Source of the DNA: an uncultured bacterium | GTDB taxonomy: Bacteria; Verrucomicrobiota; Kiritimatiellia; CAIVKH01 | Length of the DNA: 64,000 bases | Assembly: GCA_903906425.1 (NCBI GenBank) | Contig: CAIVKH010000131.1 | Span: 1 to 64,000, forward strand | Direction: 5' to 3' | Part shown: positions 1 through 64,000 of the stretch, in pieces | How the letters are laid out: each line of letters starts with the position of its first letter | Numbering within the stretch: the first letter of the stretch is position 1 | Notes under the pieces: generated by a model | What the model saw: only the letters and a program-made list of their open reading frames with translations | Told to the model about the DNA's origin: nothing | Databases searched by the model: none | Made by a program: the position numbers and the translations under genes

Positions 1-3000
1 CCGAGACTCAACGTACCGCCAGTGAGGTTCCAAATACCGCCATCGTCGCCGCTGACGACATTTCCGGCTGCATTCAATTGAATCCTGTTGACCGCAACAG
101 ATCCTCCAGCCATGTTGAGGACACCGAAGCCATCATAACCAACGCTGATCTGATCGTTGGAAACATTGAGCTGACCGCCGACGATTGTATATTTTGACGT
201 CTCGCCGGCCGAATCACCAATGCGCATATAGTAATTAAGCCCGGCGCTGGTCACATTCATGACACCGCCAGTCTGCACAATCGTTCCCGCATAACCACCC
301 TGAGCGCCCAAGTACAAGCTGCTGACCGTGACTTGCCCTCCTGAGAGCAGATTCAGTTGTCCGGGCGCACCGTTGGCCGCCCGCAAGGTGTTGTTGGTGA
401 TGCTCGCCCGACTGTCGAGGCTCACTGTATTGCGAATATTGACCATACCGGTTCCAACCACGCTGTTGGTGATGGCATAGTCGGGAGCATCAGACCTGTA
501 GAAATACAACTGCCCGTTGTTCGTAATGGATCCCACAATCGAACCGTATGGCGTATTATTGCCTATCACCAAAGTTCCGTTGACTGTCGTACCCCCAGTA
601 TATGTATTTGTACCTGTAAGAACAACATTGCTACTCGCACCTTGTATTGTGAGGCTGCCGCCACCGGAAATCGTGCTGCTCACAAAGATGCTTTCCGCGC
701 CATAGTTATACACACCCGGGGCAGTGGAGATAAAGGAATTGTCCGGCATGGTAATTGGCCGCACCCAGGTGCATGCGCCACTGCCAGCGCGCGAGGCCAG
801 CGTGCCGCCACTTAGCGTCACCGGCGTGGCAACTGTCAATCCGCCATACGCGCCGAGATACGCACCACTACTAACGATGACATTTGTTCCAAGGGCATTC
901 GACGCGTTTTCCGCATAGAGGAATCCTGCGTTGACATATATCTGGAGATTCGTTGCGCCGCTGCACATATCAACGACGTTGTTCCCGACTTTAGTCAGGG
1001 TGAAGTTGTTGCCCTGAATTCCGCCAACGGCTCCAGCGCCATTAACGACACCGATGTCAAACCGCGCATTTTCACCCGCAGTGGTGCCGAACGCCCCGAC
1101 TGTGGCATTGTTTGACAAGATCAAGTAGCGAATGGACGATTTGGCATACACGCCCGCGTTGGTATTGACAATCGCCCCGTTACTATCGGGACCGTTTCCG
1201 CTGATTGTATAGGTATAGCTGTTGTTGGGCTGCTGTATACCATTCAATTTGACCTGACCGGTTCCGTTGAGTGTGATTCCTGCGGTATTGCCAAAGGCAC
1301 CCACACCTCCGGCGACAAGAACGCCGTTGGTGACGGAAATAGGACCAGTGAAGGCGTTCCTGTTGCTTAAGATCAGCGTACCAGACCCCATCTTCGTAAT
1401 CCCTCCAGCGCCGATGATGCTGCCTCCGCCAAGGCTGTAGTTTACATTATTGTTGCTAACAATCATCATGTTTTGGAGCACGGTTTGGGCGACAGTTATC
1501 GCCGTGTTGCTGCCAGAGTCATCCATCAACACGCCATCGCCTTGACCGAAGAGACTTTGCGCACCACTGTCGATCACAAGCCAGTTTGGCGTGGTCTGGA
1601 CGTCCCAAATGTTGTTGCTTGTACCGTTCCACTTGATACCGGCGCCGGCGTTCGTGACTATATATTGAATCATCTTGTTGCCAGAATTGTTGTACAGATA
1701 GCCCCACACGCCGGAGGGAATGGCACCGGTGATGAACGTCATGCTGGATAACGATCCGTAGCGAATCAGCGTATTCGTCGTGCCTATAGTAATTCCGGCG
1801 CCGGTTTCACGCAGATCAATCCTGTTAGTCGAGGTGCTGGTGATAGCTCCAATCACATTCAGTGTCGCGTTCGTGCCGTTCAGATATGCCGCCACATTGC
1901 CACCATTGCCTATCGTCATGCTTGCCACCGTCAACATGCCGGTATCCGCATTGAGATAGTTCGCGCCGATGTAGCCACCGTTTTGAACCGTCACTGCACT
2001 GCCAACATACCCCGTACCACCTAATGTTCCACCGGAGTACACCGTATAAGCGCCGCCGCCGGTGTTAGTGCCATTGACCTGCAGATATCCTGAATTGATA
2101 TTGACAGGACCTTTGAATGGATTGGCACCGCCAAGAATTTGTGCATTGGCACCAATCTTCGCCAGTGTGATCAGGCCTGTATTGTCGCGGATACTTCCAG
2201 AGAAGCTGCCCGCATTGTCGCTGCCGCCCACCGTAAAGATTACTGCGGTTCCTGCGCTATTGGTGACAATGCCGCGCGGCCCGTTGAGGCCATTAACAGT
2301 TATGCTGTAACCGTTGAGATCCAGCGCGCCGTCTTGAATTGTGAGATCACCCTCGCCATTGCCCCCGGAAATTGCATTGACATTGCCGATTCGCAGAGTG
2401 CCGCCAGCGACGGTTGTATCACCCGTATAGGTGTTGGCACCAGTCAGGGTCAGTGTCGCGGTGCCCCACTTGTAGATGCCGCCATCGCCTTCAATTGTTC
2501 CCGCAAACGTATTATTCACGCGTTGGGCTATGGAAAGGATGCCGTTGCTGACCGCAATCTTCGTTCCGGCAGGGCCGCTGATCCCTGCAATTGACGGGCC
2601 GGAAGACATCCAAAGATTGGAAAGCGACGTCTTCGATCCGCCCGGCAGGGTGATGCTGTTGGTGAACCCAAACGCAGTGCCGCTATTAAAATAGCCAAGA
2701 GTGATGTCATGGAGCCCAGAGGCAAGAACAACAGTTCCAGTACGCTCGGTCACGGCCTGGTTGTTATCATTATTTACTACGGGTAAGCCATCAATCCAGA
2801 GCATGCTCCCATCGTCGCTTGCGGTGTAGAACATATAGGTCCCTGACACATCCGCGCGGAACTTGCCGCGATAGCGCGCCTGGAACAACGTATTTGCAAT
2901 GTTATAGGGACTCGGGAAGTTGACACCCGTGGTGCCATTGTTTCCAAAGTCGAGATTGGCCCCTTCTTCCGACGTCATGTACAGATGTGCCGGATTGTTC

Positions 3001-6000
3001 GTCGCGAAATATTGATTCATCAAATCAAGCGTCGCGAAATAACCTGTTGCCGCATTAGTCCCACCGGCAATGTAGTCGCCCGCCAGTGCACTGCCGCTCA
3101 GCGCGATCAGCGTCGCTCCGTTCGCCAAGGTCATATCTGAACTGAAGGTCGCATTGCTCAGCACTATCGTGCCGTCTTGAATTGACATGCCGCCCGTGAA
3201 GCCGCTGCCGCGCGTCAGCATCATCTTCCCGCCACCGATCTTGATAACCTGGCTGGCTTGGAATGCGGAGTTCGCTGAATTGCGTCCGTCGCGCAGCGGC
3301 GCGTTAACCTGCAATGCAACGTCGGCCACGCCCACGCTGTTGCTCACATCAAACACAACCGACGTGAACGAGCCGCCGCCAATTGCGATGCCCGGGAAGG
3401 CGTCTGATCTTGCCGGCCCGCTGATGACAGATGTCGTATTTGTCACGATGACCGTGTTTGTGCCCTTGAAACCCCACGACTCCATGGTCGCATTGAGACC
3501 GGACGGCGTTGAGAGCGTGCCGCCGGAGAATACGACATTGCCGAGGCCGTTGAAGACATTTCCAATGGTTGTAACTGTACCGCCATCGGAAATTCCAATG
3601 ATTGGAAGAACAGGATTCGTGTAGGTTCCAAACCTATCACCGCCGGCAAAAGTTAATGTGCCGTTGGTCAGAACATTGATCCTCGTCGAAGCGGAATTCG
3701 CAATCGTTCCCGCCAAAATGACCTGACCATCAGAAATGTTCATGGGCCCATAGAAACTGCTATTCGTATTGAACAGTGCCACAGTTCCGGTGCCGTACTT
3801 GGAGAATCCATACGTGCTGCGGATGTCTAAACCGCCGAACGAGTACGCCCGCGAGTAATTACTGAAGATCATCACGCCCGGATTGATCGCCGTCGGCAAC
3901 GTTATCGCCGTGTTGGATCCAACATCGTCAAACAGGACACCATCGCCCGGATTGAAGACTGTCGTCGAGTCATCGGCCATCACGAGCCAGTTCGGCGTGG
4001 TCTGCACGTCCCAGATATTATTGCTCTGGCCACCCCACCGCGTGCCGACCGTGGTATTCGTGATCACTAGTTCAATGGTCTTTGCAATGCCATTCGTGTT
4101 GAGATAACCCTGCGCGCCCGACGGCATCGTGCCGAGAGTCAATCCATCGCCGTAGAGAGTGCCGTAACTCATCAGAGTATAAGTTGTATTATTGCGTACT
4201 CCTGCCAGCGTACTGCGGACATCCACCCTGTTCGTCGAATTGATATTGAGCGCGCCCGTCACCATGATCGTCGGATTTGTCCCGTTCAGATAAACAGCCA
4301 CGCTGCCGCCCGAATTGAGCGTCAGGCTTGCCACCGTAAGTGTGCCCGTGTCAGCAGTGGGAATCTTCGCGCCGATAAAGCCGCCATTCTGCACCGTCAC
4401 CGCACTATTGACCGCGCCCGTACCGCCCAGCACAGCGCCCGAGGCCACCGTGTAGTTACCGCCACCGAGGTTGCCGCCATTGACGATGAGAGAACCTCCG
4501 CTAACATTGACTGGTCCTGTCAGTAGGTTCGATCCACCCAACACCTGAACGTTCGTCCCGAATTTCGTTAGCGAGAGCATGACCGAACCTTGATTGATAT
4601 TGCCGCCAAAGTTTCCGGCATTATCACTGACGCCAATCGTCCAGAGTACCGGCGTGGCGGAGGAGTTTGTCACGGTGCCGCGCGGGCCATTCAGCCCATT
4701 GTTCGTAATGCTGAAGCCATTGAGATCCAACGTGCCATCCTGCACGGACAGATTACCTTCGCCCGTTCCACTGGAGATAGCATTGACGTTGCCGATCACC
4801 AGTTTTCCGCCGGCAACTGTCGTATCACCGGTATACGTATTATTGCCCGTCAAGGTCAGCGCTGCTGTGCCATACTTGTAGATGCCGCCGCTGCCCGCAA
4901 TCGTCCCGGCAAACGTATTGCTCGTGCGCTGCATGATGCTGAGAACGCTGTTACTCACGGCGACCGTTGAGCCAGCGGGACCACCGAGGCTCCCGATCTC
5001 CGCGCCCGACGACAGCCACTGATTGGACAGGTAACCCACAGATCCGCCCGGAGGCGTCACACGGGAGTACATGCCAAAGCCACCCGTGCCCTGACCGAAG
5101 GCTATTACAATGTCATGCTGGCCGGCGACCAAGGTAATCGATCCGTTGCGCTCGGCCACGCCTTGCGAATAATTGTTCGACACGACCGCCGTTCCATCAA
5201 TCCATAACATGCTGGAATTATCACTGGCCGTATAGAACGTGTACGAACCGGCGGTCTGTGCGTTGTACTTGCCTCTCCAGCGCATGACGTAGTTCGTGGT
5301 GGTAATTCCGTTGCCTCCGTAGTATGGCGACTGGAAGTTCGCGCCGGCTGTGCCAAAGTCAAAGTTGGCACCCGCGTCCGCACTGCCATACAGATGATTC
5401 ATATTGTTGGTCGCAAAGCACTGGTTCAGCAGATCCAGCGTATTGAAGAATGGCGTCGAATTGACTGGAGAGGCCGAAGCTAACGAGGCCAACAACGTAT
5501 TGGTCGCAATATAATCTCCCGCCAACCCTTGTCCGGCAAGCGCGACCAATGTGACACCATTCGACAATGTGACATCCGCTGTCAGCGTTGCGTTGCTCAG
5601 TATGACGACGCCGTTCTGGACATTCATGCCACCGCTGAAGCCATTGCCCCGTGTTAGCATCATCGTTCCCACGCCCGTCTTCGTCACATAGCTGGCCTGA
5701 TTTATGGACGCCGCATTATGCCCGTCAAGCAACGGCGTGTTCACCAACAAGCCGACAGGCGTAATACTGCTTCTAACATCGAACGTCGCCGACGTGAAGG
5801 AACCGCCGCCGATTTGAATGCCCGGATAGCTCGTGTTTCCAGCAGAACCGGCGATTGTTGCAGTAATGTTTGTGCTGATCGCCGTCAACGTTCCCTTGAG
5901 TCCGTATGACTGCCATGTCGTCGCATTGCCGCGCGAGGCAGCAAGCGTGCCACCAGCCAATGTCACATTGCCAAGACCGTCGAAATACGCGCCCGAATTG

Positions 6001-9000
6001 CTAATTGCGCCGCCTTCAAACGCTGTGAATGTCGCGAACACCTGCGCCGTATGCGCCCCAAATCGGTCCTGCGCGCCAAATACAAAACTGCCGCCATTGT
6101 AGACATTGATTGCCGTCGAATTGCTGTTGGCAATTGTTCCGACCAGATAGACCGCGCCACTATAAATATTAATCGCCCCCGACAGCCCCGGATTCGCGTT
6201 CGAGAATGTCACGCCACCAGCACCAAACTTCGACAAGCCGCTGGCGCAGATGATCTGATTTCCGCCAAACGAATAGGCGTCCACTTCGTTGCTGAATACA
6301 AGAGAACCGGGCGCAACAGCAAGTCCGGGGTCAAGGATCGTGATTGCCGTATTGGCACCCTGATCGTCAAACAAGGTCGCCGCACCGGTAAAGAAAACGC
6401 CTGTGCCGCCGACACCGCCCGCAAACGCCCAGTTCGGGGTAATCCCGGAGTCCCAAATATTATTGTTATAACCCATCCACTGGACACCCGCGCCTGCGTC
6501 GGTGATTCTCAGTTCAATGGTCTTCGCGGCTGTGTTCGTGTACAACGCGCCTTGAGCACCATTCGGCAACGGGGTTGCCAACGTGAGGCCGCCCGGCACA
6601 CTGAGGGTCGCGTAGCTAATCAATGTATTCGTGCTGACAGACACTAACCCTGTCGCCGTGACATCGACATAGACAGGTAATGTTGCGCCCATCTGGCCGC
6701 TCACGATCACCGACGGATTCGTTCCGTTCAGAATCGCCTCAACACGGCTGCCGGCGCTCAAAACCAGATTGCTCACCGTCAATGCCCCGACATATCCGTC
6801 GCTGCGAACACCAATCTTGCCTCCATTCGCCACGTTCACCGTGCCCTGCGCGATGGTGCCGACACCACTAAGGAAGGCATTCGTCGCAACCGTGTAGCTG
6901 CCGTTATTCGTGTGCAGGCCGTTCACATACAGCGTTCCGGTGTTCACAAATGTCTGGCCCGCATAAGAATTCGTTCCCGATAAGGCCAGGCCGCCGAACC
7001 CGGTCTTCGTGATGTTGTAGCCAGAACCGCCGTCGCCAATAGCTCCGCTGATCGTATTTGTGGGGCCAAGTTGATTGCTGACCTTCAAGGAGGAATGGGC
7101 TGTCAGCACGATCGTATTCGTTACCTGCACATCCGTCGCAAGGAACAGACCGTCGCCTGCATCGGCTATGGCCTGGTAATTTGTGATTACAGCCTGACCG
7201 CGTCCTAGTGGATCATATGCCACGCCCAAAGTATAATTGGCTGGCCACCACGGGCCGGTGCCACTGCTTGGTCCGGCTCCGCCGCCGCCGTTATAGACAC
7301 GCAGGTTGAACACATGCATGCCGGGCGAAAGCGTGATCGTTCCAAGCGTGGGAGTATTCCACGCCCCATCGTTGAGTACGACTGAGTTATCTATCTTCAG
7401 CCATGTCACTTCATCTTCATTCTCAGCGAAGGTGTATGTGACAGTCGATGAGTTTGTATTCATCAGATAGCCGGAGAAGACCCACGTCGTATTGCCACCG
7501 AAGTCATTCGTCATGTTGGCGCGCGGCGTTGAGAGCGTGACGGCCGTATTAAGCGAATTTGCCGTTGCGGTGTCAATCGCGGCGCCGCTTCCGATGCTGC
7601 CTTCCTGCAAGCCGGAGCCATCGAGCGCCAGCGTGCCGCCCGCCAGCGTGATCGTTCCGCGCCCGCCTGCGTAACGCGTCTTCAGATTGACGGAGCCATT
7701 ACTGACAATCAGCCCGCCGCTGAACGTCGGATTCTGGTTGCCCGTCGTCAGCGTCAACGTCCCGGAGCCGGCCTTGACAAGTTGCAATTGTCCGCTGCCG
7801 CTTGCTGTATCACGCAGGTAAGAGCCGGAATAGTAGGAATTGCCGGAACCTGTGAGTACCAGCACACCCAACGTGCCCGCTTCGCCGTCCGTGTTTTCAA
7901 TTACACCGCCGCCATTGTCATCGCTGGTCAACTGGCTCAGATACTGAATCGTGCTCATGAGCTTGAAGTAGGTCCAGTCGCCGGGCGACCCACTAAGTGT
8001 GAGCGCCGAAGCAGAGCCGAACTGGTTGTTCGTGCCCATTTGAAGAATGGCAGTGGCCGCGCCAATGCTGTCGGCTTTGTTGCCAATCTGCACCGCGCCC
8101 GGTATGGCATTGCCGGCTGTGCTACCAGCCAGAAGAGTTCCGCCACCGTTGTTGACTATGGTTGCTCCCAAGTAGGAGTTGGAAGCGGTTAAAGTGAGCG
8201 TATTGGCGCTAATCTTGGTGAAGCCCGCGGCACCACTTATAATATTGGTCAGCGTCAGGTTGCCGCCGCCCGTATCAATGGTGCTGTTGGTGTTGATGAT
8301 AATTCGCGGTCCAACCCCGGCGGCACCCGCACTGGAGCAGTAAATTGTGCCGCCATTGAGCACGTTCGTCTTGGAGACCGTCGGGCTTTGATAATAGTCA
8401 AGTGTTCCGGCGGGATTCACATAGATGGAGCCGGGTCCCGAAATAACCGCGACGGTCGTCTCTGGCCGCACGGATCCCGCGTTGATGACTATGTCGCCGC
8501 TATTGGTGACCAACGTATTAACCAGGCCGAACGTGGTTGTTCCGAGCTTCGTCAGGGTATAACCGTTGAGGTTCAGGAATGGATTTGTGCCGGCGCGAAT
8601 ATCCCAGCGATTGCCGCTACCGCCAAAAGCCGCATTGTTGGTAAGCGTGACGTATTGCAACGCGTTGATCTGTTGCGCGCCACTGTTGATGATCGCACCA
8701 TTGCCACCCACGCCCGCTCCCGCGACAAACACCGGTTCCTGACCGAGGTTCTGGCCGTTAGCGTCAAGGGTTGCGCCGCTGCTTATATATGTCGCACCGT
8801 TCGTCAAGCCTAGCGCCGCGCCGCTTGCCGCAATCACGGTGCCGGAATTGATGTATGCCGCGCCGCTGAACGCATTGGCATTGCTGAAGATGACCGCTCC
8901 GCCGCCGTTCACACTGAAGCCGGCAGGACCAACGATGGCAGAACCGGCGAAGCTGTATTGCACGCTTGAATTACTGAAGATCATGGTATTCGGCGCGACG

Positions 9001-12000: not shown

Positions 12001-15000
12001 GTATCATAGCCATTGACCAGCAACATGCCGTTGCTGACGACTGCCGCGCCGCTGAACGTATTCGTCGCGTTCAACACGAGGATGCCACTGCCTGCCTTGT
12101 TGAATCCGCCCGTGCTGACCAACGCGCCGCTCAGCGTGATGATCAAATTGGTCGGCACATCAATCGTCACGTTCCCGTTCGTGGCATTCAAATTCATGTT
12201 GAGCGCGGACGACCAGCTCGCCGACGCCGACAGTGTGCCGCCGCCCAGATTAATAATGTATGCGCTGCCTCCGGTTATGCCGCCCGCGCCGATTGTCAGC
12301 GAGCCGCCGTTCAGGTCGAGGATTCCCGTGTAGGTGGTGTACATCGTCATTTGATAGAGCGATGCAGATCCGCCAATCAAATTCCAGATACCGGCTGCGC
12401 CGTTCCAAGTGAGATATGTTATACCGTTGGGCACGCTCAACGTACCGCCGTACATATTGAAGGTGCTCGTCTCCGCCCCATACTCACCGATCATGAAGGC
12501 TCGGCCGCCTAGGTTGCCGCTATCCGTGCCGTTCACCGCCAGCGAGCCGCTATACATGTTGAGCGTATTGGCAACGGCCTGATTTGCCTGACCCAGCGCA
12601 AGTACGCCGTTGAGCACGATGGTCGAATTATTTGTGATTATCACCGTGCTGCCGCCGATAGTATTCAAAGCACGTGCGGCGTTAGCTATGGTGTTTGTGA
12701 GCGACGCGCCTCTGAACTGGAGAGTGCCCGCCGTCACATAAATAGTATTGCCAAGCAGATCGCCCTGACCCGTCATGATTGTGGTTCCGCTGCCGCGCTG
12801 CTGCAATCCGCCCGTGCCGATGATCGGAGCGGCAAACGTGTACGTATCATTACGATTGAACGCCACCGCGACGCCATTATTTGTGAGCATTGTCTGGACG
12901 ATGTCGCCGCTGTTTCCGCCATTGCCGATCTGGAGGAGGCCCGATGCGATGGTTGTTCCACCAGAATACAGGTTCGTCGCCGTGAAGGTGACAGTGCCCG
13001 TCGTGCCGATGATCGTTACACTGTATGCTCCCGTTATTGCGCCGGCAACAGTGATACCTTCTTCACCATACTGCGGAGGCTTCGAAGCAAAGGACGAGTT
13101 TGCCGTCAGCGTGATCGGGCCGGACCACGTAACATCACCCACCGGCGTGTTGCCCGCGCGCGATGACAACGTGCCGCCGTTCAAGGTCACGGCATTCGTT
13201 ATGAGGCGGCCCGTCACGTTGCCATAAGCGCCAATGTAGCCAGCGCTATTGACAATGATATTCGTGCCGAAGTAGTTCGTGTTCGGAGTAAAGTTTTCCG
13301 TATAGACAAAGCCTTCGTTAATGACAAGCGTCATATTGGTCACAGGGCATCGGATCGGCAACGAAGAACCACCAACCTTCGTCAGCGTGTTGTTGTTACC
13401 CTGTATCCAGCCATTGATACCGATGTCCGTACGGTTGCCTTCAATTCCGGGATTGCCCAACGCGCCGATGGTCGCATTCGTGGCCAGTGTAAGCCAGGTT
13501 ATGGCAGCATTACCGACCAGAGATCCATTGGTGTTGACAATTGCGCCCAAGCCATCCGGACCAGCGCCGCCAATTACGTATTTATAGGTGCCTGTCTGTG
13601 CAACACCGTTGAGGTTGATCTGACCGCCAGCCATGACGGTAATGCCCGTCGTATTACCGAGAGCGCGGAGCGAGCCAATCTTCAGTATCCCGTTTGTCAC
13701 CGTGACCGCCCCAGCGTAGTCGTTGCCAGCACTGCTGATCGTCAACGTGTTTGTGCCGCTCTTGTCAATGCCGGTCAAGCCAGTGATTCTGGCGCCCGTA
13801 AATGTGAAGGCATTCGTGCTCGTCTGGACGGTGATCGAGGCAGGTGCGACTGAACCGATGATATTCACCGTGTTGGTCACGCCCAGCGTATCATCGAACA
13901 ACACAGCATCGTTGTTGAAGAAGAAGTCGTTCTGCGCTGTCGTCGAGTTCCACCAGTTCGTGCTCGTCGCAACATCCCACAGCGTGCTGCTCGTGCCATT
14001 CCATCGCAGAGCGCCCGCAAGAACGTTTGTCACAACGAGGTTGACCTGGTTCGGTGTTCCCTGATCAAGCAGGAATCCAGCGCGTCCATATCCCAGTATA
14101 TTGGAACTGAAGCCTATTCCGCCGCGAGATCCGCCGAAGTTGACCAACCGATACGTCGCATTGTTCGTCGGCGGCGTCTGGAAGTTGAGACTGATCGTGT
14201 CGCCATTCGCCGTAAAGTTGCCGGCTATGGTCAGCAAGTCATTCGCACCGCCGCCAATTGAGTTGGTCGCGCTCAACTTGAAGTAGCTGGTGACGCCGCC
14301 GTTGAGCGTCAGATCGTTGGTGAAGTACAGCGTGCCGGGCTGGTTATAGTAACCGGGTTTCAGGATGGAGCCAGCAGCCATGATCACACTACCCGTAACA
14401 TTGCCGCGTCCAGCGAGGATCTCGCCGGCAGGAATCGTGTAGCCCGGTATGCCGGACAGATCCAAAGTACTGTTGTCGAGTATCGTAATACTTGAATTAC
14501 TGATTGCGCCGCTACCCGTCAGCGCGATGCGGCCACCGCCGATAACCGTTTCATCCGCATAGGTGTTCGTGCCGGACAGAACCAAGGTGCCGGCTCCGAT
14601 CTTGTAGATGCCGCCGTTGCCCGCGATCAAGCCTGCGTTGGTTCCGTTATACGTCTGGGCGATAGTCAGCAATCCGTTGCTGATGTACATCAAGCTGCCG
14701 ACCGCACCATTCAACGTTCCGACACTGGAGCCAGCGCTCAGCAGTGAATTGGAAATATTGTAAATGTTGGTAGACGTCGGCTGCGTGAGCCAGAGATTGT
14801 ACCCGAAGCCGCCGCCGCCCTGGCCATAGCCGAGAACGATATCGTGCAGACCCGCTGTAAGGCTGATCGTGCCATTCGATGTCACAGGACCACCGCCTGC
14901 ATTTCGACCGACGACATACTGGCCGTCAACCCAGATGGCACTCTGATCGTCGCTCCGGGTTCCGAAGGTGTATGTACCGGCGGTCTGTGCATTGAATTTG

Positions 15001-18000
15001 CCCGCGTGAACAACCATGAAGTTGCCGGCATTATTGTTTCCTGCGCCACCAATGCCATACGGCGACGGGAACGCAACGCCGTTGTCGCCGAAGTTGAACG
15101 TATTGCTGCCAGACGCCGCACTGTAGCACATCATGGTCGGGGTCAGCGTTGAGAACGTGCGGAACATATTCGTCAGCGTTTGGAAGTAGGCATCCGCCGT
15201 CCCGGTATTGTAGTAACGCCCCATCAGCCCAAGGCCGCTGCCGCCGATGAAGACCGTGGTCGCGCCGTTGGATATCACCAGTGGACCGCTCAACTGGCTG
15301 TTGGAAACCACGAGCGTTCCGGCGTTGACATACGTCGTGCCGTTGTACTTGTTGCTTATACCGCCGAGGGTGAACGAGCCTAGGCCGGCTTTCACCAGCG
15401 ACAGAGGCGTGGTGAGCGTATTGGTGACGTTGTTCTGGATGCCTCCACGGAACTCGGATGTTCCATTGTTCGCGCCAACAACCAGCGTGCCGGCACCCAT
15501 GTTAATCATTTCGACAGTGCCATATCCCGTCAGGCGATCAATCGCTTCGTAGCCCGTATTCAGGAAAACAACCGCATTCGTCGCCACATCCACGCGGGCA
15601 GAATCCGGCAGAATGTCGCTTGATCCACCGCTTCCACCAATTTCCAAGGTGGTCGTATTGCCCGCAACCCAGACATCGCCGGTAAACGAATTGTTGGCCA
15701 GCGCGGAGTTGATGGTGAAATTGCTGATCTTCTGTACGGCATTCTGGCCGCCGGTACCGCCGGCAAATCCGACATAGCCGGAACTCCCGCCCAATAGGGT
15801 CGCGAGATTCACACCTGGGAAGGTCATGCTGAAGGTCCGCGTCGAATTCTGTTCCGCCAGATAGACGGAGACGCTCTGGAACGAAGGATCGTAGGCGACC
15901 GTAAAGTCAATCGGGTTGCCATTGGTGACCAGATTGACAGGCAATACCGCGTAGTATGGAGCCGTTGCGCCCGTTCCGCCGGTCATAAGCTTAATACCCT
16001 GGGTGTTCGGCGCATAGATACAGATACCTACCGCCATGCTGTTGGCAATGCCGCTATAGCCAAGGCCAGCAGCGCTGGCGCCAATCGCATTGGTTCCAGA
16101 GCCAGAGTTCTGGATGATGAATGAGGCCCCGTCAGCACCCCTGTTGCCTGAAGGCGTGTACGTGAATCTGGCGATGAATCCATTGGTGAGATTGAATTGC
16201 GCTGTGTAGAATGCGCTTCGCGCCTCGCTATTCGTGCCATCCGTAAGCGTCAAGACGTCAGCCGCAAACGGCGGGCTGCTCAATGCGTTGTTGTTCACGC
16301 GCCAACCCGCCCCGGTGACACCAAAGCCCGACAACAGGTTCACCATGCCGCCGACAGGATTGAGTTTGGTCCTGTTGCCGCCCGTGATGGTTAGGTTGCT
16401 AACAAAGCCAGTGAAGGGACCCTGATACTCCGTGCGGTCCGTGTTCATGCCTTGCAGAGTCACAGGGCGATTCATCGTGATAGCACCTGCGAACAAGTCA
16501 ACGACCGTGCCGGCGTCTGATCCAACGGTTATCGTTCCGGCGATGTTTGTCGTTACCGTTATCGACTGCGACACGGTCACGCTGCTGGCATCCGCAATCA
16601 ACCCAATCGCCGCTGTCGCAATTGAATTTGTATCGCCGATGGTGATGCTGTTGTTTACGCCCAGGGCGCCGCTGTTCTGCATCTGGATAATGCCCTGGCT
16701 GAGTGTGACAGTACCCGAGAAGCCGTTCGTTGCAGCCATCAAGACGCTGTTCGTGCCAAGTTTTAGCATGGAACAACTGCCGGTAATCGCACCGGGTCCG
16801 TTGAGGACATAGGCGCGCAGACTGTTCGAGAACACCAGTGACGCGGGCGAGACGGGCTGCACGCCGGAAAGCGTGACAAGATTTGTCAGGCCAATCGTGT
16901 CGTCAAAGACCACGCTGTCACCGTTGAAGAAATAGTCAATCGCCGTGGTGCCGAAGTTATAGAAGTTCTTGTTGCCATAAGAACCGTTCTGCCAGACGAC
17001 ATCATTGGTCGAATTCCACCGTAACGTGCCACCAAGACCCAAGTTTGAGATGCCGATATCAACCGCGCCAGACGGGTACGTGATGTTGTAGGTTCCGCGT
17101 TGCGGCGTCACAACGTCGGTGTTGAACGTGCCGCTGCGCGTCCCGCCGTACGTTATCAGGCGGTATGTGGCGCCGTTCGTGAACACCGTCAACGGAGTCA
17201 AATACAGGCGGTCATTCGAGGTAATCGTCAGGTTGCTGGTAATGTTGACCAGATCGTTCATTCCGCCGCCAACATCGCCGTTGGTGCTCAGAGTGAAGTA
17301 GTTCGTGGCTAAGTCGGTTTCGGTCAGGTGGCCGTTGATGGTCAGTGTGCCCACGAGGTTTCCGACGCCCGGGCTGAGTCCCGCGCCGTTTGTCGCTGTG
17401 ATATTGCCGTCAACCTGACCGCTGCCTTGCAGGATCTGTCCGCCCTTCAGGCCGAAGCCACCAGAAACAGAAACGACATTCATCGTCGCGATGCCGCTGA
17501 CGGTGATGTTCGGGCTGCTCGTGATTGCGCCGGGTGCGACAAGCGTCAATGTCCCGTTGCTGACAACTGTGTTTCCGACGAAGGCGTTATTATTTGTCAG
17601 CGTCAACACACCTGTGCCAACCTTGGTGAAACTGCCCGTGCCGCTGATGATTCCGCCGAGCGTCAAGCTGCCGGATGAGACACCGATGGACGCATTGGAA
17701 TTGAAGGCAATCGTGCCGTTGAAGTTGTTGTTGCCGCCAATATTTTCCAGCGCGCCAACGCCTGCGCCGTTGGTCAATACGCCGATACCGTTGAGTTGAA
17801 TCGGCTCGGTCAGAGCATAGATGCCGACGTTGTTGAGGGCCAGTGTTCCGTTCGAGTTCACCGTCACGCCGCCGGAAACCGATCCCAGTGCATTCGTAGA
17901 GGCGGCGATCAGCTTGACGTCCCTGTTGACGAGCAACGGATTATCGAATGTGTTGTTGCCGCTCAAGGACAGCGAGCCGAATGAGACCGTTCCGTTGTTG

Positions 18001-30000: not shown

Positions 30001-33000
30001 ACCACACCGGAGATGGTGCCCGTACCGGCCAGATAGCCGGCGTTGATGTTCACCGTGCCGCTGCCCGTGCCGGAACCGGTGCCATTGTTGACAGTCAACG
30101 TACCACCGTTGACTGTCACTGTTCCGTTATAGCCTCTGCTGTCACCAAAGAGGACCATGATGCCATTGCCGCTCTTCGTGATGGCAAGACCGTTGGTGAA
30201 CGAGGAGATGACGATCAGATCGGCCGCCCCGCCACCTGCCGCCACATTGAACGTGCCGCCGGCGCGCAGGAAGATGCTTTGCGCAGTAATATAGGACGGG
30301 CTGGCGTTAGCCAAGGTCGTGATGTTGCCATCAAAGATGTAATTGCCTGTCCCGTCGCCCGCGCCTTCCGAAGTGATCGTGCCGGCATTCATTGTAACGC
30401 CGTAGTTGAGGACGGAAGCGTGAACGCCTGCGGCGATTGTCATCGTGCCGCCATTGATGACGAACGGGTTGGGATTGCCGGCATACCAGCCCAATGCGTC
30501 GCCGACAGCCAGTCGCAGAACCGCGCCCGTTTGAACTGTCACCGGCCGGCTCACGCCGAGCGCCGTGCCGAGATTGCTGCCAGATACAGAAACGGTTACA
30601 GTGCCCGCGTTGATGACAGTGCCGGCGCTAAGTGTATTGCTGTTGTAGCCCAGCGTCAGCGTGCCCACTCCAACTTTGCTGATACCGCCAGTCCCGGAGA
30701 GATAGCCAGTCAAAGTCATCGTATTTGTGAGTGTATCAATCGTCGTCATGCCGTTGGTGCCGGTGAGTTGCATGTTCGCCGCCGCCGTCCAGCTTGCCAG
30801 ACCGACGAGCGTGGCACCTCCGAAATATTCGGAATCATAGCCGCTGCGGTTCAATATGCCGCCGCCGCCGATTTCCAGCCTGCCGCTGGCAAGCACAAGG
30901 ACGCCCGTTCCGCCGTGTCCACCGCCGCCGCCGCCGGAGACTTGCACGCCGTAAACCGTCGCCGTGCTGCCGGACATCTGCCACACGCCGCCGCCGTCCC
31001 AACCGACATAGACGATGTCGTTCGAGACCGTCAGAAGACCGCTAACCATGTTGTACGTACTCGTCTCATTGGCCCAAAGCCCGACGCGGAAGGTGGATCC
31101 ACTTCCCGTGTACATGACCACGCCGCCGGATTGGTTGACGACACCGTTGTAGAGGCCTCCATTTTGATTGCCCAAAAGCAAACTGGTTGTGGAGAGAACG
31201 GCGTTGTTTTGTATGTTCAACGTACCATTTGTGCCGCTAGGAATACCGCTGTTTCCGACCTGCAGACTGCTTCCTACACGCAGATAGGCGTTGCCGTTCA
31301 ACGTCACCGCGCCACCCGCCGCGTTCAACTGATTGATGGTATTGCTGGCGGTGGTTATGATGAGTGCGTTCGTGCCAACCTTGTTCAATATCGTCTGACT
31401 GCCGTTCGTTAGTGTTCCGCCATTGAATGTATAGACCAACAAATCATTGGAGACCGTGATGTATCGCGGTGACAGACCGCCGACCAACGTGATGTTGGTG
31501 ATCTGACCGCTGCCGACGTTCCTGTCGTCGAAGGTGACTGAATCACCCGTATAGAAGAAGTCGCTCGTGGCGGTGAGAAGGTTCGTCCAGTTCTTGTTGA
31601 CGCCGACATCCCACAGCCCGCTGCTGGTGGAGTTCCATACAAGCGTCGTGGACAGCGCACCGGCGGCAGATATGGCCAGATTGACCTGATTCGGCGTGTC
31701 ATACTGCAGCGTGTAAACAGCGCGTGACGGCGCGGCCACGTTCGTGCTGAAGTAGCTTCCCAGCGTCCCGCCATACGTATAGAGCGTGTACACGCCATTG
31801 GTCATGAACGAAGTCGGCAGGATCGTGATGGTCGCTCCATTCGGATTGAGGTTTCCACCAATGATGATCTTGTCATTGCCAGCAACCGTGTTCGTGCTCA
31901 ACCAGAATTTGTTTGTCTGGCCTGTCGCCATCGTCAGATCGTTCGAGAATGACAGCGTGCCGACCGCATTGGATACGCCACCCATGATGATCGTGCCGGA
32001 TGCGGCCGTCATCGAACCCGTGACCAATCCGTAGCCTTCCAATTGTTGGAAGTTTGCCAGTCTGTAATTTCCAACCATTGGAGAAACATCCAGAATCGCA
32101 TTCGTGCCGATGAGGATCGTCTGCGAATTGGTGATAATCGCATTGCCGGCAAGCTGCAGCGTGCCGTTCGATATGATCGTCATGCCATGATAGAGATTCG
32201 TACCGGTAATCGTCATCAGGCCCGCACCGGACTTGGAGAAGCCGTTGGTCGGCGTGCCCGCGCCAATGCCGTCGGTCATAGCCGCGCTAACCAGCAAGTC
32301 AGTCGCCGCCACGCCGTCCTGCACATCGAACCGGCCCTGCGTATCGAACATCACGCGTCCGGAGATCACCGAACTTAGCGCATTGGACAGGACATAGATT
32401 CCCCAGTCGGGACCGTTGGCCGCGACACGCCATCCAGAGGCGGTGAGGTTGTTGGTGCCGTTGTTGGACCTAATCTCGCCACCCTGCATATAGACCGTCT
32501 GGCCCCCGCCCATGCCGCCATTCGCGCCCATGGCGGTATCCCCAAGCAAGACGCCGCGATTGATGTAGACTGTCGTCACATTGCCGGACGTCACCGTCGG
32601 GAAGCCGAGGCCTTTCGCCGCCATCACGCGGGCAGTCGCGCCAGTGTTGATCGTCAGCACACCCTTGATGGTTCCCAAGTTCTGGCCGCCATCGCCGTAG
32701 TTCAACGTGAGTGTACCGCCGTTGACGATCGTGCCGCCGCTGTACGTCTCGCAGCGGCCCGGATTCAGGACCATTTCGCCGCTGCCGACCTTGTTCAACG
32801 CAAGCGTTCCTGCCGCGCCGTCAACAATCCAGCCGTTATACGTGCTGTTGTTGTTATCGCCAATGGTCAACGTCGCCGGCAGGCTGGCGCTCATGTTGCG
32901 CACGACCGTGCCAACCGCACCAGTCAACATGCTGAACGATAAGTCATAGCCGTTCAGATTGAGATTGCCGCTGGCGACATTCATCGGCCCGCGGCTGAAG

Positions 33001-36000: not shown

Positions 36001-39000
36001 CCGACGGTTCCGCCATCGCCCATTTGCACGATGCCATTCTGGATAAACGTCATGCCGGTATAATCATTCGCGGTCGCCAGAATCAATGCGTTGGTTCCCG
36101 TCTTCGTAAGAGCGATTGCGCCACTGATCCTGCCCGCGCCGCTGAGCCGGTATTGAACGAGGTCGTTGCTGAACGTTACAGAGGTCGGCAGGACCGTGAC
36201 GCCAAGTGTCACATTGGTGATCAGGCTGGGCGCGGAGGTGTCGTCGAACAAAACATTGTCACTATTGAAGAACACCGCGCCTGCCGAGGCGGAATTCATG
36301 TTGTACCAGTTGGTGGATGTGGCAATATCCCAAGCCGCGCCACTCTGCGAATTCCACCGCATCGTGCCATTAAACTGGCTGCCGTCTAGGACGACTGCAT
36401 TGGCCGTATAAATCGGCTGTATGCGGCTTTGGTACAGCGTGCCGCCGATCTGCACATAAACATTGGTGTAGAACGCGCCGCTGCGCGCACTGAAGGTCAT
36501 GATCGTATACATGCCCGTGGAAAGCATGGTAAATGGCATGACGTTGATAACATCGGTGGCGGTTGCCGTCAGCGTGTTGCTAATAACAATCAAATCATTC
36601 ACGCCGCCGCCGGTCGTCGTGACATTGGCCAGATCGAACCAGTTGGTCGTTCCGCCGTTCAGCGTCAAATTCGTCGTGATAACCAAGGTGTCCGCATCAA
36701 CCGTGCAACCCGGGATGATCTTCGCACCCGCATTGATGACGAGACTGCCGTTGACGATGCCCGCGCCTTGCAGCGTCTGGTTGCCCTGAATCGTGTACGA
36801 CGTATTTGACGCAACATCCAGTGTGGCATTGTTCGTCAGCGTGACAACGCGCGAACCGAATATTGATCCGGCAGTTCCAATCTGTATCTTGCCTGCCGCA
36901 ATGACCGTCTCGCCACTGTAGGTGTTGGCCGCATTGAGATACAGAATGCCGTTGCTGATCTTAGTCAGGCCACCCGTGCCGGACAGGATCCCGGTCAGGC
37001 TTATCGTATTCGTCGCGCCGGAATCGAACGTCGTCGGGCCGTTGGTGCCGGTCAGATACATCGGAAGACTCGAACGCCAATTCGCATACGCGCAAACTGT
37101 TCCGCCGCCCAGATTGAAGACTGCTGTTCCGGCGAAATTGCTGATGCCGCCCTGCCCAATGACCACCAACCCTGCTGTCATGTTCAGATAGCCGATGCCG
37201 CCATTGGCTGCGATTTGGTAAACGACAGATGTTCCACCGAATAAGTTCCAATTGCCCTGCGCTCCATTCCAAGGCAGGAAAAACAGTCCGTTCGTGACAT
37301 AAAGCGATCCGCCAGCCTGACTGTATGTGCTGGTTCCCATCGGATATTCTCCGATTTGGAATGCACGGTTATAGCCGGCTGCGTCGTAGCCATTGACGGC
37401 CAACGTGCCGCTGTATTGAATGATGTTGCCCCCATTGCCGCTGACCGATGTACCGAGCGCGACATTTCCACCCAGTGTTATGGTGGAGTTGTTCGTAATG
37501 ATGATCGTCGCGCCAGCGCCGGGCGCTTCAATGTTGAAGCTGCGCCCGCCCACGGCTGTTGTCATGGTCACTGTCGCGGCGTTGAAGGTCAACGTGCCGG
37601 TGCCCACCTGTTTGAATGTCGCGCTGCCGGTCATCGTGCCGGAGAATGTGGTGTTCCAGTTGTTGGTGCCGGATGTCAGGGTCTGACCACCCATGACGAC
37701 CGAACCGCCCAGATTGCCGCCGCCTGCCAGCGAACCAATGGCCTCGGAATTGCCGATGACGAGCGAAACGCCCGCCGCATTTGCCAGCAAGACAGGGCTG
37801 CTGTCGGCTATGGCCGCGCCGTTGGCCAGCGTAAGCGTGCCCTGGCTGATGGTTGTCACACCGGTATAGGTATTGGCCCCTGTGAGACTCAGGTTGCCCG
37901 TGCCAATCTTGGTGAGAGCGCCGACGCCGGTCAAGGCTTGGCCGATGCCAACGGCATAACCACCGTCATCAATTGTGCCGCCGCCGCCGTTAATCGTCGC
38001 TGTCGAGATGGCGATGAAGCTGTTTGTGTTCTGCGCCGCCTTGAGCGTTCCGCCATTGAAGTTCATATAGGCAGTTGCACCCGTGCCAAAGGCGCGCGCG
38101 CTTCGCAGCGTGCCGCCGTTGAGGTTGATGGTACCGGTTCCGCCGTAGCCCGCGATATATACCCTGTCATTCGGGAGCGCCCCGCCACCGGAGTTGGCAA
38201 TGCTAACCAATGCATTATTGGAAATGTTAAGTGTTCCGGCGCCCGGCCCGCCGCCGCTGGACATGAACAGGAAGTTCGTAATGTACTGGCTTGAAAGCGA
38301 GCCGCCAACGCCACCGCTAAATCCGACATACGCCGTTTGGCTATTATTTAATATCGTGCTGAGGTTTGCGCCCAGAGTCCATGAAATCGAGAATGCGTTT
38401 GTCGTATTTTGTTCGGCCAGCGATTCAGTGATAGTGCGCGTCGCTGGATTGTAGGATATTGTCATGTTCACCGGATTACCGTTGGTCAAGTTCACGGGCA
38501 GCACCGAGGTGAAGGGCGTGTAAACAGCACCGTTTGTGAAAATTCGAGTTCCAACGGTATTGTTATTATAGAGGTTAAATCCAACGGCCAGGCTATTTCC
38601 GATACCACCATATCCGAGCCCGCCACCGGTGCTTCCTATAACATTCGTGCCGCCAGCGGCATTGTGCATGACGAAAGCAAAACCGTCTGCGGCCTTGTTG
38701 CCGGCAGCCAGATAGGTGAACGACGCGGTGAAGCCGGTGCTGACCAAGAATTGCGAGCCATAGAAGGCTGTGCGTCCCTCATTGGCGACATTATCAGTAA
38801 GCAACAGGACGTTGTTGCTGATGGCGGGACCGACAAAGTTCGTGCTAATTACGTTCCAGCCCGTGCCATTCCCGCCAAACCCTGTATAGTTGGCACCACC
38901 CGAGTCCTGACCGCCGATGAAGACTCGTCCGCCGCCGCTGCCTATGTTCAGCGTCGCACTGCCGGACACATTCACAACGCCGGTGCCGCTGCCGTAGCCA

Positions 39001-48000: not shown

Positions 48001-51000
48001 CTGCCATAGAAAACGGCAGTCGCCCCATTTGTAATCGTCAGCGAACCGCTCAACTGGCTGTTGGTGATGATGAGCGTCCCTGCATTAAGTGACAGAGGTC
48101 CGCTGAATTTGTTACTGCTTCCGCTCAGGGTCATCGTGCCCGACCCCACCTTGCTGAGGCCAAGCACTCCGCCGCTGTTCACAAGGTTTGTGACGCTATT
48201 CTGAAGGGTGCCGGCAAACTCGAATGATGAATTGTTCGCGCCCACCGTGAGCACGGAGAGAGCCGGCGTGTTGTTCAACACCGAGCCGGAGCCCGTCAGG
48301 ATATCAATCGTTTCCGCCGATGTGTTCAGAGAGAACGAGGCGTTCGTGCCGACGTCCACGCGGTTGTTATCCGGCAGAATGTCGCCACTCCCGCCGCCGT
48401 TGCCAATTTCCAAAATCGTGCCCGCATCCGCGATCCAGGTGTCGCCCGTAAACGTATTGTTCGTGGCCACCTGGCCGGCCGCCATGAAACTGACGTTGGC
48501 AAACGTCTGGGTAGAAGATGATCCGCCCGCACCGCCGCTGAATCCGACATAGCCCCACGTGCCGCCAAGCAAAGACCTGAGATTCACATTTGAATATGTG
48601 ATGCTAAAGGTATTGGGCGTCGTCAGTTCAGCCAGCGATTCAGTGAGCGTCCGCGCGGCGGAATTGTATGTCAGCGAGACATTGATCGGATTGCCATTTG
48701 TCAGATTCACCGGCGTGACCGGCGTGTAGTTATACACCATGGTTCCGCTTCCTTGGATGATTTCCGTACCGACGGTTCGTCCAATACCATAGATATTCAG
48801 AGAAATCGCAAGATAGTTAGCAATTCCGATCAATCCGTCTGATCCGGCGGTCGCGCCCACGACCGCCGGTCCGCGTGGATCATTCTGGATTATGAAGGTC
48901 GCGCCATCTGCATATGAAACATTGCTATTGCCCATTACCGTGTAGGTGAAACTGGCGGTGAAGTCGCCCGGGATATTGACGGGCGTGGTATAGAATGCGG
49001 AACGCGCCGCATTGAGAGTGCCATCCATCACCATCAGCACATCGCCCGTAATCGGCGTATTGGTGATTACCGTGTTGTTGACCCGCCAGCCAGTGCCATT
49101 TCCGCCGAGACCGGAGATGATCGCGGTGCCGCCGGTCACTGGATTCAACCGCGTCTTCTGCCCGCCGTTGACCGTCAGCGTGCCGACATTGCCTGAAATC
49201 GTGCCGCGATATTCAGTGCGATCACTGTTCATACCCTGCAATGTCGTCGCACGGTTCAAGGTCAGGGAACCCGAATAAATGGCGGCAACAGAACCCGTGT
49301 CAGAGCCGATCGTGGCCGTTCCAGACCCGATATTTTGGACAGTGATCGGCAGCGGATTTGTAATATTGCTGGCGTCGGTCAGCAGTGAAATAGGATTATT
49401 GCCGGAGCCGGCATCGCCCAGCGTGATCGTGCCGCCGGTGCCGAGGGCATGATCCGCCTGCAATTGTACGACGCCCATGCTGATGGTCGCGCCGCCGGAC
49501 TGCGTGTTGTTCGCCGCGGAGATCACAAGATTACTTGTGCCGCTCTTGTACAACGCCGCCACGCCGCTGATGTTGCCGGGGCCGGCGAAGGTGTAGGTGC
49601 GCGTGTAGTTCGTCATGGCGATCAGGGCGGGCTGGACGGAAGGCACGCTGATGGAGATATTGCCGACCAAGCCGGCACGATCATCGAATACTACAGTGTC
49701 GCCCTGATAGAAGACATCCGGCTGGGATGTGCCGAGATTGAACCAGTTCGCGGTCGGACCTGTGTCCCACGCGACGCTGCTCTGTGAATTCCAGCGCAGC
49801 ACCCCGGGCACACCCGCGTTCGCGATGTTCAAAACGACCTGATTTGCGGGATACTGGAGCGTGTACTGGGCGCGCACGCCCGATGAGACCACGTTCGTAT
49901 TGAAATAGCCGGTTTGCGATCCAATATATGTCATCAGTGTGTACGATCCATTCGAAACACCTCCCTGCGCGTTGACGGCAACGATGCTGTTGTTCGGCGT
50001 GAGATTGTTGCCAATGGTCATCTGGTCATTCGTTATGACGGTCGGGGACGCGCTCAAATCAAAGAAGTTGGTCGAAACGGCGTTCAGTGTGAGATCGTTT
50101 GCAAAGGAGAGCGTACCCACGATATTGGTGCTGCCGGGCATCAGCGCCGCGCCACCCGCCACAATCACACCGCCGGAAACGGTCCCGACGCCGGCGAGCC
50201 ATTGTCCGCCGTAAAGCGTGTAGCCGCCGCTTACGGAGCCTACGTCAAATACTGCGGCGTTCGTGAGCATTATAACCGGTGTATTGGAGATCATTCCTGT
50301 AGCGCCCAGTGTAAGCGAGCCTCCAGCAATTGTTGTGATGCCCGTGTAGGAGTTCACTCCGGACAATATCTGTTGATTGCTGTTCGTCTTGGTGAGGGCC
50401 AGGCGGCTCCCGATCCTGCCGGAGAAAGTCGCCGAGGTCCCGCCGTTTGTTCCCAACGTGAGCGTGGCGATCGCTGTATTCGTGACCACATATCCCGCAT
50501 TATTGGTGTAAACATCTATGTTCGTCACGGTTCCCGCCCCGGACAGGGAGGCGATCATTTGCGAGACGCCATTCAAATCAAGTGATCCGCTGGAACTGAT
50601 CGCGACGGTCGTGTTCGTGGGCAACACATTGTTTTGCACGAACGCGCCGGGACTGGACCCAAACCATTTGGCAGCCAGATATGATTCAACTGTCATGCGC
50701 TCAGCCAGCGGCAGTGTCCGCGTGAAGACGAGCACTTCGCCGAAGTCGCAGTCGGACAATTCCGCTGTGAGGGTGGCGGTGCCGCCGCCCAATTCCAAAC
50801 CTCCGGGACCGCTTGTGCCTAAGTTGTTGGCGATCAGAAGCGTTGCAGGGATTGTGCTTCGAGCCGCGTCATAAACATAAATTTCACTGTTGCTACCAGG
50901 CCCGCGAATGACGGCCTCATACATGTGTGCCACGGTATCTGGCGGGGCGCCGGTAGCGCCACCCGGAGGCAGAACCCATGCATTGAGATAGGCCTTGTCT

Positions 51001-64000: not shown

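What the first reader, a model, noticed from the sequence alone, without database searches (positions are those of the whole stretch)
1..64000. An uninterrupted coding frame of at least 21,332 codons fills the whole window
One minus-strand frame stays open from 63998 to 3, and both edges translate as the same kind of repeat protein, so the real gene is longer than 64 kb. This is among the largest bacterial genes; known comparisons are the roughly 36,800-codon gene of Chlorobium chlorochromatii and giant genes reported in Omnitrophota. Such genes are usually broken by assembly, so an intact one is informative.
Basis: partly seen in the sequence, partly recalled or inferred. Interest (0 to 1): 0.9.

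Follow-up and report, generated by a model that had tools for sequence, protein, structure and literature searches.

The report
Giant chain of fused adhesin-like units
A bacterium carries one gene that encodes a surface-type protein of at least 22,000 amino acids, built from more than twenty copies of a unit that other bacteria use once per adhesin, which gives a way to study how such enormous proteins grow, fold and leave the cell.

Summary
Confirmed: the minus-strand frame has 0 stops in 21,332 codons. The window is bases 1-64,000 of a 127,286-bp contig. The gene starts about 2.4 kb beyond the window (ATG at 66,407, or more likely 66,260 or 66,257), so at least 22,085 codons are present. Its 3' end is cut off by the contig end, so the gene is not intact. 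No exact direct repeat exceeds 24 bp, which makes short-read repeat collapse unlikely.

The protein is a tandem array of at least 22 passenger-like units: a start motif (LRWxG..WD..NW..FDD), a PATR beta-helix and an end cap; 21 caps and 19 start motifs score. The modelled cap aligns with the autochaperone regions of IcsA, Ssp, Ag43 and EspP. Eight lectin, laminin-G or PA14 domains are inserted; no catalytic family was found. Units diverged under purifying selection (dN/dS 0.20-0.32). Smaller siblings show at most 4 caps and many end in a shared C-terminal domain without a Pfam or NCBIfam match above cut-off. No autotransporter barrel was found in the genome.

Best reading: an exported, multivalent glycan-binding fibre grown by unit duplication. 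Its size is no record; its architecture is a new variant of a known kind.

The parts
3..63998 (-). window part of the giant coding sequence; the whole frame is contig 3-66407 (22,135 codons from the first ATG, 22,086 from ATG 66260), 3' end cut by the contig end
53520..53960 (-). Laminin_G_3 domain (PF13385)
   Evidence: 37.8 bits, cut-off 27.6
48471..49043 (-). legume-type lectin domain (PF00139)
   Evidence: 40.8 bits, cut-off 26.3
38253..38891 (-). legume-type lectin domain (PF00139; also PF18483 below its cut-off)
   Evidence: 39.3 bits
47559..47801 (-). PA14 domain (PF07691)
   Evidence: 34.6 bits, cut-off 24
14805..15032 (-). PA14 domain
   Evidence: 36.6 bits
10167..10409 (-). PA14 domain
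   Evidence: 32.1 bits
5079..5321 (-). PA14 domain
   Evidence: 36.8 bits
2625..2930 (-). PA14 domain
   Evidence: 58.3 bits
13548..14507 (-). modelled junction: autochaperone-like end cap (14019-14507) followed by the next unit's start motif (13737-14009)
49521..50291 (-). cap 49806-50291 plus start motif 49521-49799 (E 9e-56 and 2e-32)
31356..32135 (-). cap 31659-32135 plus start motif 31356-31643 (E 2e-58 and 2e-27)
1368..2057 (-). last cap (1641-2057) and start motif (1368-1637) before the contig end; the other 17 caps and 15 start motifs are listed
1632..4037 (-). one complete unit of 802 residues with a PA14 domain and 3 PATR stretches

Best explanation
The gene encodes an exported, extracellular or cell-surface fibre. 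It is a tandem array of at least 22 autotransporter-passenger-like units, mostly 700-1,300 residues long. Each unit is a beta-helix closed by an autochaperone-like cap, and some units carry a sugar-binding-type domain. Inferred working: the chain leaves by Sec, each cap nucleates and closes the folding of its own unit so that the fibre folds unit by unit, and the lectin, laminin-G and PA14 domains give multivalent binding to glycans of a surface or another cell. The missing end most likely holds one or more further caps and the C-terminal domain shared by many siblings, which would be the export or anchoring tag. The gene grew by duplication of whole units, which then diverged under purifying selection. 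Shown here: frame, units, cap model, domains, divergence. Inferred: export, location, binding, missing end.
For: PATR at E <= 0.01 in 22 of 22 pieces that cover the protein, over its cut-off in 21 of 22, 72 stretches in all. 21 caps and 19 start motifs, each of the 19 starts 1-5 residues after a cap. Junction model pLDDT 87.7; its residues 1-162 align with IcsA autochaperone 3ml3 (Z 14.3, 135 residues, 2.5 A), Ssp 8e7f (Z 14.8), Ag43 7koh (Z 12.9), EspP 3sze (Z 10.8) and 7jvi (Z 16.9). Eight binding-type domains over cut-off and no catalytic family. dN 0.33-0.47 against dS 1.3-1.9 in 6 of 6 segment pairs. Siblings: 21 of 31 frames have at least one cap, and in 11 of the 13 frames with both a cap and the C-terminal domain the domain begins within 21 residues of the last cap's end. 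Hydrophobic stretch at residues 65-83 just before the first start motif.
Against: The C-terminus is not seen. No signal-peptide program, expression data or reads were available. The cap and start profiles were cut from one alignment of the giant's own copies, so their adjacency inside the giant is partly built in; the siblings are the independent test, and 10 of 31 sibling frames show no cap. Foldseek itself gave only E 0.003 or weaker. The whole-unit model is poor (pLDDT 65.8). dS is near saturation. Binding is read from domain names only. Weak NCBIfam hits to autotransporter peptidases (best E 2e-12) and one xylosidase (E 0.002) lie below their cut-offs (4 of the 22-piece span tested there).
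Confidence: 0.62

Rival explanations
1. A true type V autotransporter: the missing C-terminus carries a 12-strand barrel that exports the array.
For: PATR and autochaperone-like caps are hallmarks of type V passengers (the link to type V is recalled).
Against: PF03797 has 0 matches in this 93% complete genome while E. coli and Caulobacter ring; 12 of 16 PATR-matched sibling frames with a seen 3' end finish in another domain. A diverged barrel could be missed.
Confidence: 0.1
2. A giant surface weapon or polysaccharide-degrading protein, as proposed for Omnitrophota giants.
For: Similar size class and PVC-type lineage; two of the upstream neighbours are glycoside hydrolases GH127 and GH123.
Against: No catalytic Pfam family at E <= 0.01 in any of 22 pieces covering 22,135 residues (a domain cut by a piece border could be missed); no array of membrane helices by hydropathy, only 7 windows of 19 residues above 1.6.
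Confidence: 0.1
3. A polyprotein cut after export into separate units of about 800 residues.
For: Unit borders are sharp, with cap and next start 1-5 residues apart.
Against: No protease domain appeared over a cut-off; a cleavage motif was not looked for.
Confidence: 0.1
4. Assembly artefact: several PATR genes joined by repeats.
For: Assembly of 383 contigs with PATR matches on 31 of them in a capped list; other PATR contigs do break inside the conserved C-terminal domain.
Against: No exact direct repeat above 24 bp in 66.4 kb; no shared C-terminal domain inside the giant, as fusion of whole genes would leave; even composition and codon pattern; the one contig-end overlap seen elsewhere was 37 residues, far above 24 bp.
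Confidence: 0.04

Closest known systems
Type V autotransporter passengers with PATR and an autochaperone (IcsA, Ag43, Ssp, EspP)
   Same: PATR beta-helix; the cap fold aligns with their C-terminal passenger region, for IcsA the named autochaperone
   Different: they have one passenger and one autochaperone next to a barrel (recalled); here 21 caps lie in one chain and no barrel is found in the genome
Giant ORFs of Omnitrophota (PMC10066038, passages read)
   Same: ORFs over 20 kb, some with laminin_G_3, presumed adhesion
   Different: those reported often have many membrane helices or few annotated domains; here a regular array of PATR units
Chlorobium chlorochromatii Cag_0614 and Cag_0616 (PMC4053972, passage read)
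   Same: 36,805 and 20,646 aa, repeat-rich adhesin type
   Different: described there as similar to hemagglutinin and RTX-family adhesins with calcium-binding repeats; not compared by sequence here
Giant1-5 of Apilactobacillus kunkeei (PMC12863079, abstract and outline read)
   Same: very large surface proteins, beta-solenoid domains predicted for Giant1-4
   Different: 3,000-8,000 aa, lactic acid bacteria, solenoid domain at the N-terminal end
PATR proteins of the same genome
   Same: start motif, PATR helix and cap; 21 of 31 frames have at least one cap
   Different: at most 4 caps and 3,447 residues as assembled (15 of 31 are cut at their 3' side), and many end in the shared C-terminal domain

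Membership tests
PATR-repeat proteins (PF12951, TIGR02601) | PATR matches over the curated cut-off | tested here: met
   Pfam in 21 of 22 pieces; TIGR02601 in 4 of 4 pieces tested
Classical type V autotransporter | C-terminal 12-strand beta-barrel translocator | tested here: inconclusive
   the giant's C-terminus is missing; genome-wide PF03797 gives 0 matches with two control genomes ringing
Classical type V autotransporter | beta-helical passenger with autochaperone-type cap | tested here: met
   model of one junction; the profile occurs 21 times rather than once
Classical type V autotransporter | Sec signal peptide | tested here: inconclusive
   hydrophobic stretch at residues 65-83 and a plausible start at ATG 66260; no predictor run
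Giant genes (over 20 kb) of the PVC group | single ORF longer than 20 kb | tested here: met
   66.4 kb
Omnitrophota-type giant proteins | multiple membrane helices | tested here: inconclusive
   hydropathy only: 7 windows above 1.6 in 22,135 residues
Proteins with the shared C-terminal domain (alignment A1) | 150-residue domain ending in TNRFLRLRVTRP or close to it | tested here: inconclusive
   not inside the giant; the place where it would be is not in the contig
Type IX secretion | SprA translocon in the genome | tested here: inconclusive
   0 matches to PF14349, but no control genome rang

The most novel reading that the evidence does not exclude
A polymeric autotransporter passenger without a type V barrel: some 22 passenger units, each with its own autochaperone cap, are exported as one chain by an undescribed exporter that recognises the shared C-terminal domain (25 near-full-length and 15 partial matches in this genome), the serial caps letting an indefinitely long chain fold outside the cell unit by unit.
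Probability: 0.35. Interest if true: 0.82.

Novelty: new variant of a known kind. Interest (0 to 1): 0.62.

Why it matters
It turns an odd size record into a testable design: a giant bacterial protein made of repeated, self-capped folding units whose smaller siblings, with 1-4 caps, lie in the same genome. That allows direct tests of how giant genes grow (unit duplication), how very long beta-helices fold after export, and which exporter reads the shared C-terminal domain, for which Pfam and NCBIfam gave no match above cut-off in the proteins tested.

Tried and rejected
A sigma factor then gave best hits of 64% identity to the Chthoniobacter flavus genome, 52-60% to six other genomes whose record titles I place in Verrucomicrobiota, and 46-47% to two Planctomycetota; of four genomes of the same family or class given, three had 62-71% and G032 only 44%. 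So Verrucomicrobiota is likely, but the class is not named.

Finding the missing 3' end: no other place in the genome overlaps the contig start. Sibling contigs with open 5' ends (C300, C262, C51 plus C186, C248) could hold it, but nothing singles one out. The giant's tail resembles regions about 670-760 residues before the end of C300 and C183, but also regions 1,279 and 2,198 residues before the end of C230. The last unit is 545 residues long at the cut against a median cap-to-cap distance of 837, so the missing piece may be short; this is inference.

Synteny: the GH127 neighbour has only 28-32% best relatives in the family, so no syntenic test was possible. Shared leader: 450 bp upstream of the giant's first ATG matched none of 19 sibling upstream regions; no Rfam match in the window and L004 at gathering thresholds. 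Independent assemblies: an exact 30-mer and one junction protein found nothing in viral contigs. The census of PATR frames in the class lists rows by E-value, is cut, and scores at most 22 candidates a genome, so 10,689 codons is only the largest frame seen there outside this genome. A whole-unit model was too poor to use. One search ended in a script error after printing the tail comparison; the self-comparison was redone.

Full report
Observation. In the window the minus frame 63998..3 has 21,332 codons and no stop; the five other frames hold 230 to 1,406 stops. A first-order Markov model expects 535 stops. GC3 is the highest codon position in 42 of 42 bins of 500 codons, and synonymous codon use correlates at 0.91 with three neighbouring genes taken together; the gene's GC (0.565) is lower than the flank's (0.607). 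The open frame is therefore coding, not chance.

Extent. The window is bases 1-64,000 of contig C131 (127,286 bp) in a genome of 6.66 Mb and 383 contigs, 93% complete, 5.36% contamination. The frame continues to 66,416; the first ATG is at 66,407, and ATGs at 66,260 and 66,257 come just before a hydrophobic stretch and the first unit's start motif, so I take these as the likelier starts. At least 22,085 codons are present, up to 22,135. The 3' end is cut by the contig start.

Assembly. The longest exact direct repeat in the 66.4 kb is 24 bp and there is no exact inverted repeat of 18 bp or more. Elsewhere in the genome two contig ends share 37 residues exactly (C51 and C186), which suggests an overlap length near 111 bp, far above 24 bp. 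Sibling PATR contigs, in contrast, in several cases break inside a conserved C-terminal domain (C154, C241, C328, C339). No other place overlaps the start of C131. Reads were not available.

Anatomy. The whole 22,135-residue protein was scanned in 22 pieces. PATR (PF12951) was found at E <= 0.01 in 22 of 22, over its cut-off in 21, with 72 stretches in all; five PA14, two legume-lectin and one laminin-G domain passed their cut-offs; no catalytic Pfam family appeared at E <= 0.01. NCBIfam, run on 4 of these pieces, gave TIGR02601 in 4 of 4 and, below their cut-offs, autotransporter adhesin and peptidase models and one xylosidase model. Self-comparison showed a higher-order repeat: 485 piece pairs after a simple redundancy filter at E <= 1e-8, median identity 40%, maximum 67.5%. 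The most repeated piece gave an alignment of 18 copies (A2). Split into an end part ('cap') and a start part, it finds 21 caps and 19 start motifs in the giant at E <= 1e-3, each start 1-5 residues after a cap. Caps lie a median of 837 residues apart; 19 of 20 distances are 697-1,296 and one is 2,064. The two caps without a scored start have a visible W..NW motif. The array is thus at least 22 units, counting the cut-off last one; the stretch before the first scored cap (residue 2,469) and the 2,064-residue gap may hide more. Adjacency inside the giant is partly built in, since both profiles come from its own copies. In the siblings, which were not used to build them, 21 of 31 frames have at least one cap and the same cap-start order appears; 10 of 31 show no cap, so not every PATR protein here is of this type.

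Fold. The junction model (320 residues, 18 sequences) has mean pLDDT 87.7. Foldseek's best hits, at E 0.003 and 0.014, are the Ssp autotransporter and the IcsA autochaperone; none reaches 0.001. Realigned, residues 1-162 match 7jvi, titled a beta-helix domain from a gut metagenome (Z 16.9), Ssp (Z 14.8), the IcsA autochaperone 3ml3 (Z 14.3, 135 residues, 2.5 A), Ag43 (Z 12.9) and EspP (Z 10.8); residues 163-311 match 4kh3, titled a bacterial self-associating protein (Z 11.8). By sequence, the last part of the profile, the PATR-like end, also finds IcsA 5ke1 at E 2e-5. No Pfam autochaperone family matched the 18 copies at E <= 1; 13 of 18 matched PATR. So the caps look like autochaperones by fold, and the chain looks like passenger units fused head to tail. 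The whole-unit model is too weak to add to this (pLDDT 65.8).

Evolution. Six pairs of related segments give dN 0.33-0.47 against dS 1.3-1.9, ratios 0.20-0.32, so the segments have been kept as protein; dS is near saturation. The most alike segments are both neighbours (residues 20101-20900 and 20907-21700, 56%) and distant ones (5701-6579 and 16629-17500, 52%), as expected from repeated duplication of units.

Siblings and the C-terminal domain. The PATR search of this genome scored 150 of 399 candidates, on 31 contigs including C131. I fetched the 30 others, long contigs in part. A composition filter gave 31 frames and dropped the frame of C160, which has one PATR match but a different composition. 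Fifteen frames run off their 3' side. Of the 16 with a seen 3' end, 13 finish in one conserved domain of about 150 residues; C98, C220 and the first of two overlapping frames of C248 do not. Counting only frames with a listed PATR match and adding C160, it is 12 of 16, since one frame of C325 has the domain but no listed PATR match. In 4 of 4 such proteins tested the domain had no Pfam or NCBIfam match above cut-off; the one weak hit in it was Gpi16, E 0.01, below cut-off. The genome gives 40 matches to it, 25 near full length and 15 partial, many of those at contig ends; it is also on proteins that look unrelated to PATR. Of 57 other genomes searched, one of the same family has a strong match (E 4e-54) and the rest are at 6e-12 or weaker. 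It is not inside the giant. Siblings show at most 4 caps as assembled; in 11 of 13 frames with both, the domain begins within 21 residues of the last cap's end (exceptions C300 and C363). No autotransporter barrel was found in the genome. The SprA test is inconclusive because no control rang.

Spread. PATR occurs in 245 of 345 genomes of the class, this one included; the longest frame in the listed rows outside this genome is 10,689 codons, but the list is cut and sorted by E-value. The junction profile finds 46 of 345 genomes, this one included, at E <= 1e-15, with frames up to 6,459 codons in the listed rows outside this genome; at most 7 candidates a genome were scored.

Working hypothesis. 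Shown: the frame, units, cap model, binding-type domains and selective constraint. Inferred: Sec export, folding unit by unit on the caps, a fibre that by general knowledge of beta-helix geometry would be a few hundred nanometres long, multivalent glycan binding, and a missing end with a cap and the shared C-terminal domain.

Comparison with print. Larger bacterial genes are known: Cag_0614 of 36,805 aa (PMC4053972, passage), an Omnitrophota protein of 39,678 aa (PMC10066038, passages), and up to 85,800 aa cited in PMC12057145 (one section and passages). A census of huge proteins points to the PVC group (PMC11573180, passages), and planctomycetes are rich in giant genes, the largest of Fuerstia being 36,239 bp (PMC5177795, passages). 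Ten searches of the open-access library listed no paper, by title and the start of the abstract in the rows shown, on serial autochaperone caps in one protein; several listings were cut, and most subscription papers and preprints are not held, so this is no proof that none exists.

Verdict. A real giant gene, incomplete in this assembly, not a size record, with an ordered architecture that appears to be a new variant of the PATR passenger.

Noticed in passing
contig C131 66878-126593 (outside the window; e.g. L004 9615, 9647, 14324, 14356): Palindromes of the form TTCCAANNNTTGGAA, mostly TTCCAATSATTGGAA and often in pairs 32 bp apart: 39 copies in 60.9 kb of flank, 0.0 on average in 20 mononucleotide shuffles of the flank, 8 in the giant gene; 210 more in 534,522 bp of other held contigs.
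   Followed up: partly
window 26058, 32037, 56382: In three end caps the same palindrome-like DNA lies at the cap's GQxLxG position and reads FQSLEG or FQQLEG, at a fixed place in the unit. Chance or past insertion is open.
   Followed up: partly
L132 10971-11420, L147 8869-9318 and 11 others (alignment A1): A 150-residue C-terminal domain without a Pfam or NCBIfam match above cut-off gives 40 matches in this genome (25 near full length), on PATR and other exported-looking proteins; it may be an export or sorting tag.
   Followed up: partly
contig C227 11039-12073 (within L164): The shared C-terminal domain is fused in frame to an N-terminal part that reads, by eye, like a response regulator; possibly an assembly join.
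   Followed up: no
L151 (C248) 3171-3315: Two long PATR frames overlap out of phase, looking like a frameshift in one sibling gene.
   Followed up: no
L004 6690-6718, minus strand: A sigma-70-like promoter match (TTTACA, 17 bp, TACTAT) lies about 280 bp upstream of the first ATG; 3 such matches in the region against 0.7 in shuffles.
   Followed up: no
L004 7071-14286: Upstream neighbours are a GH127 and a GH123 glycoside hydrolase and a sensor kinase.
   Followed up: partly
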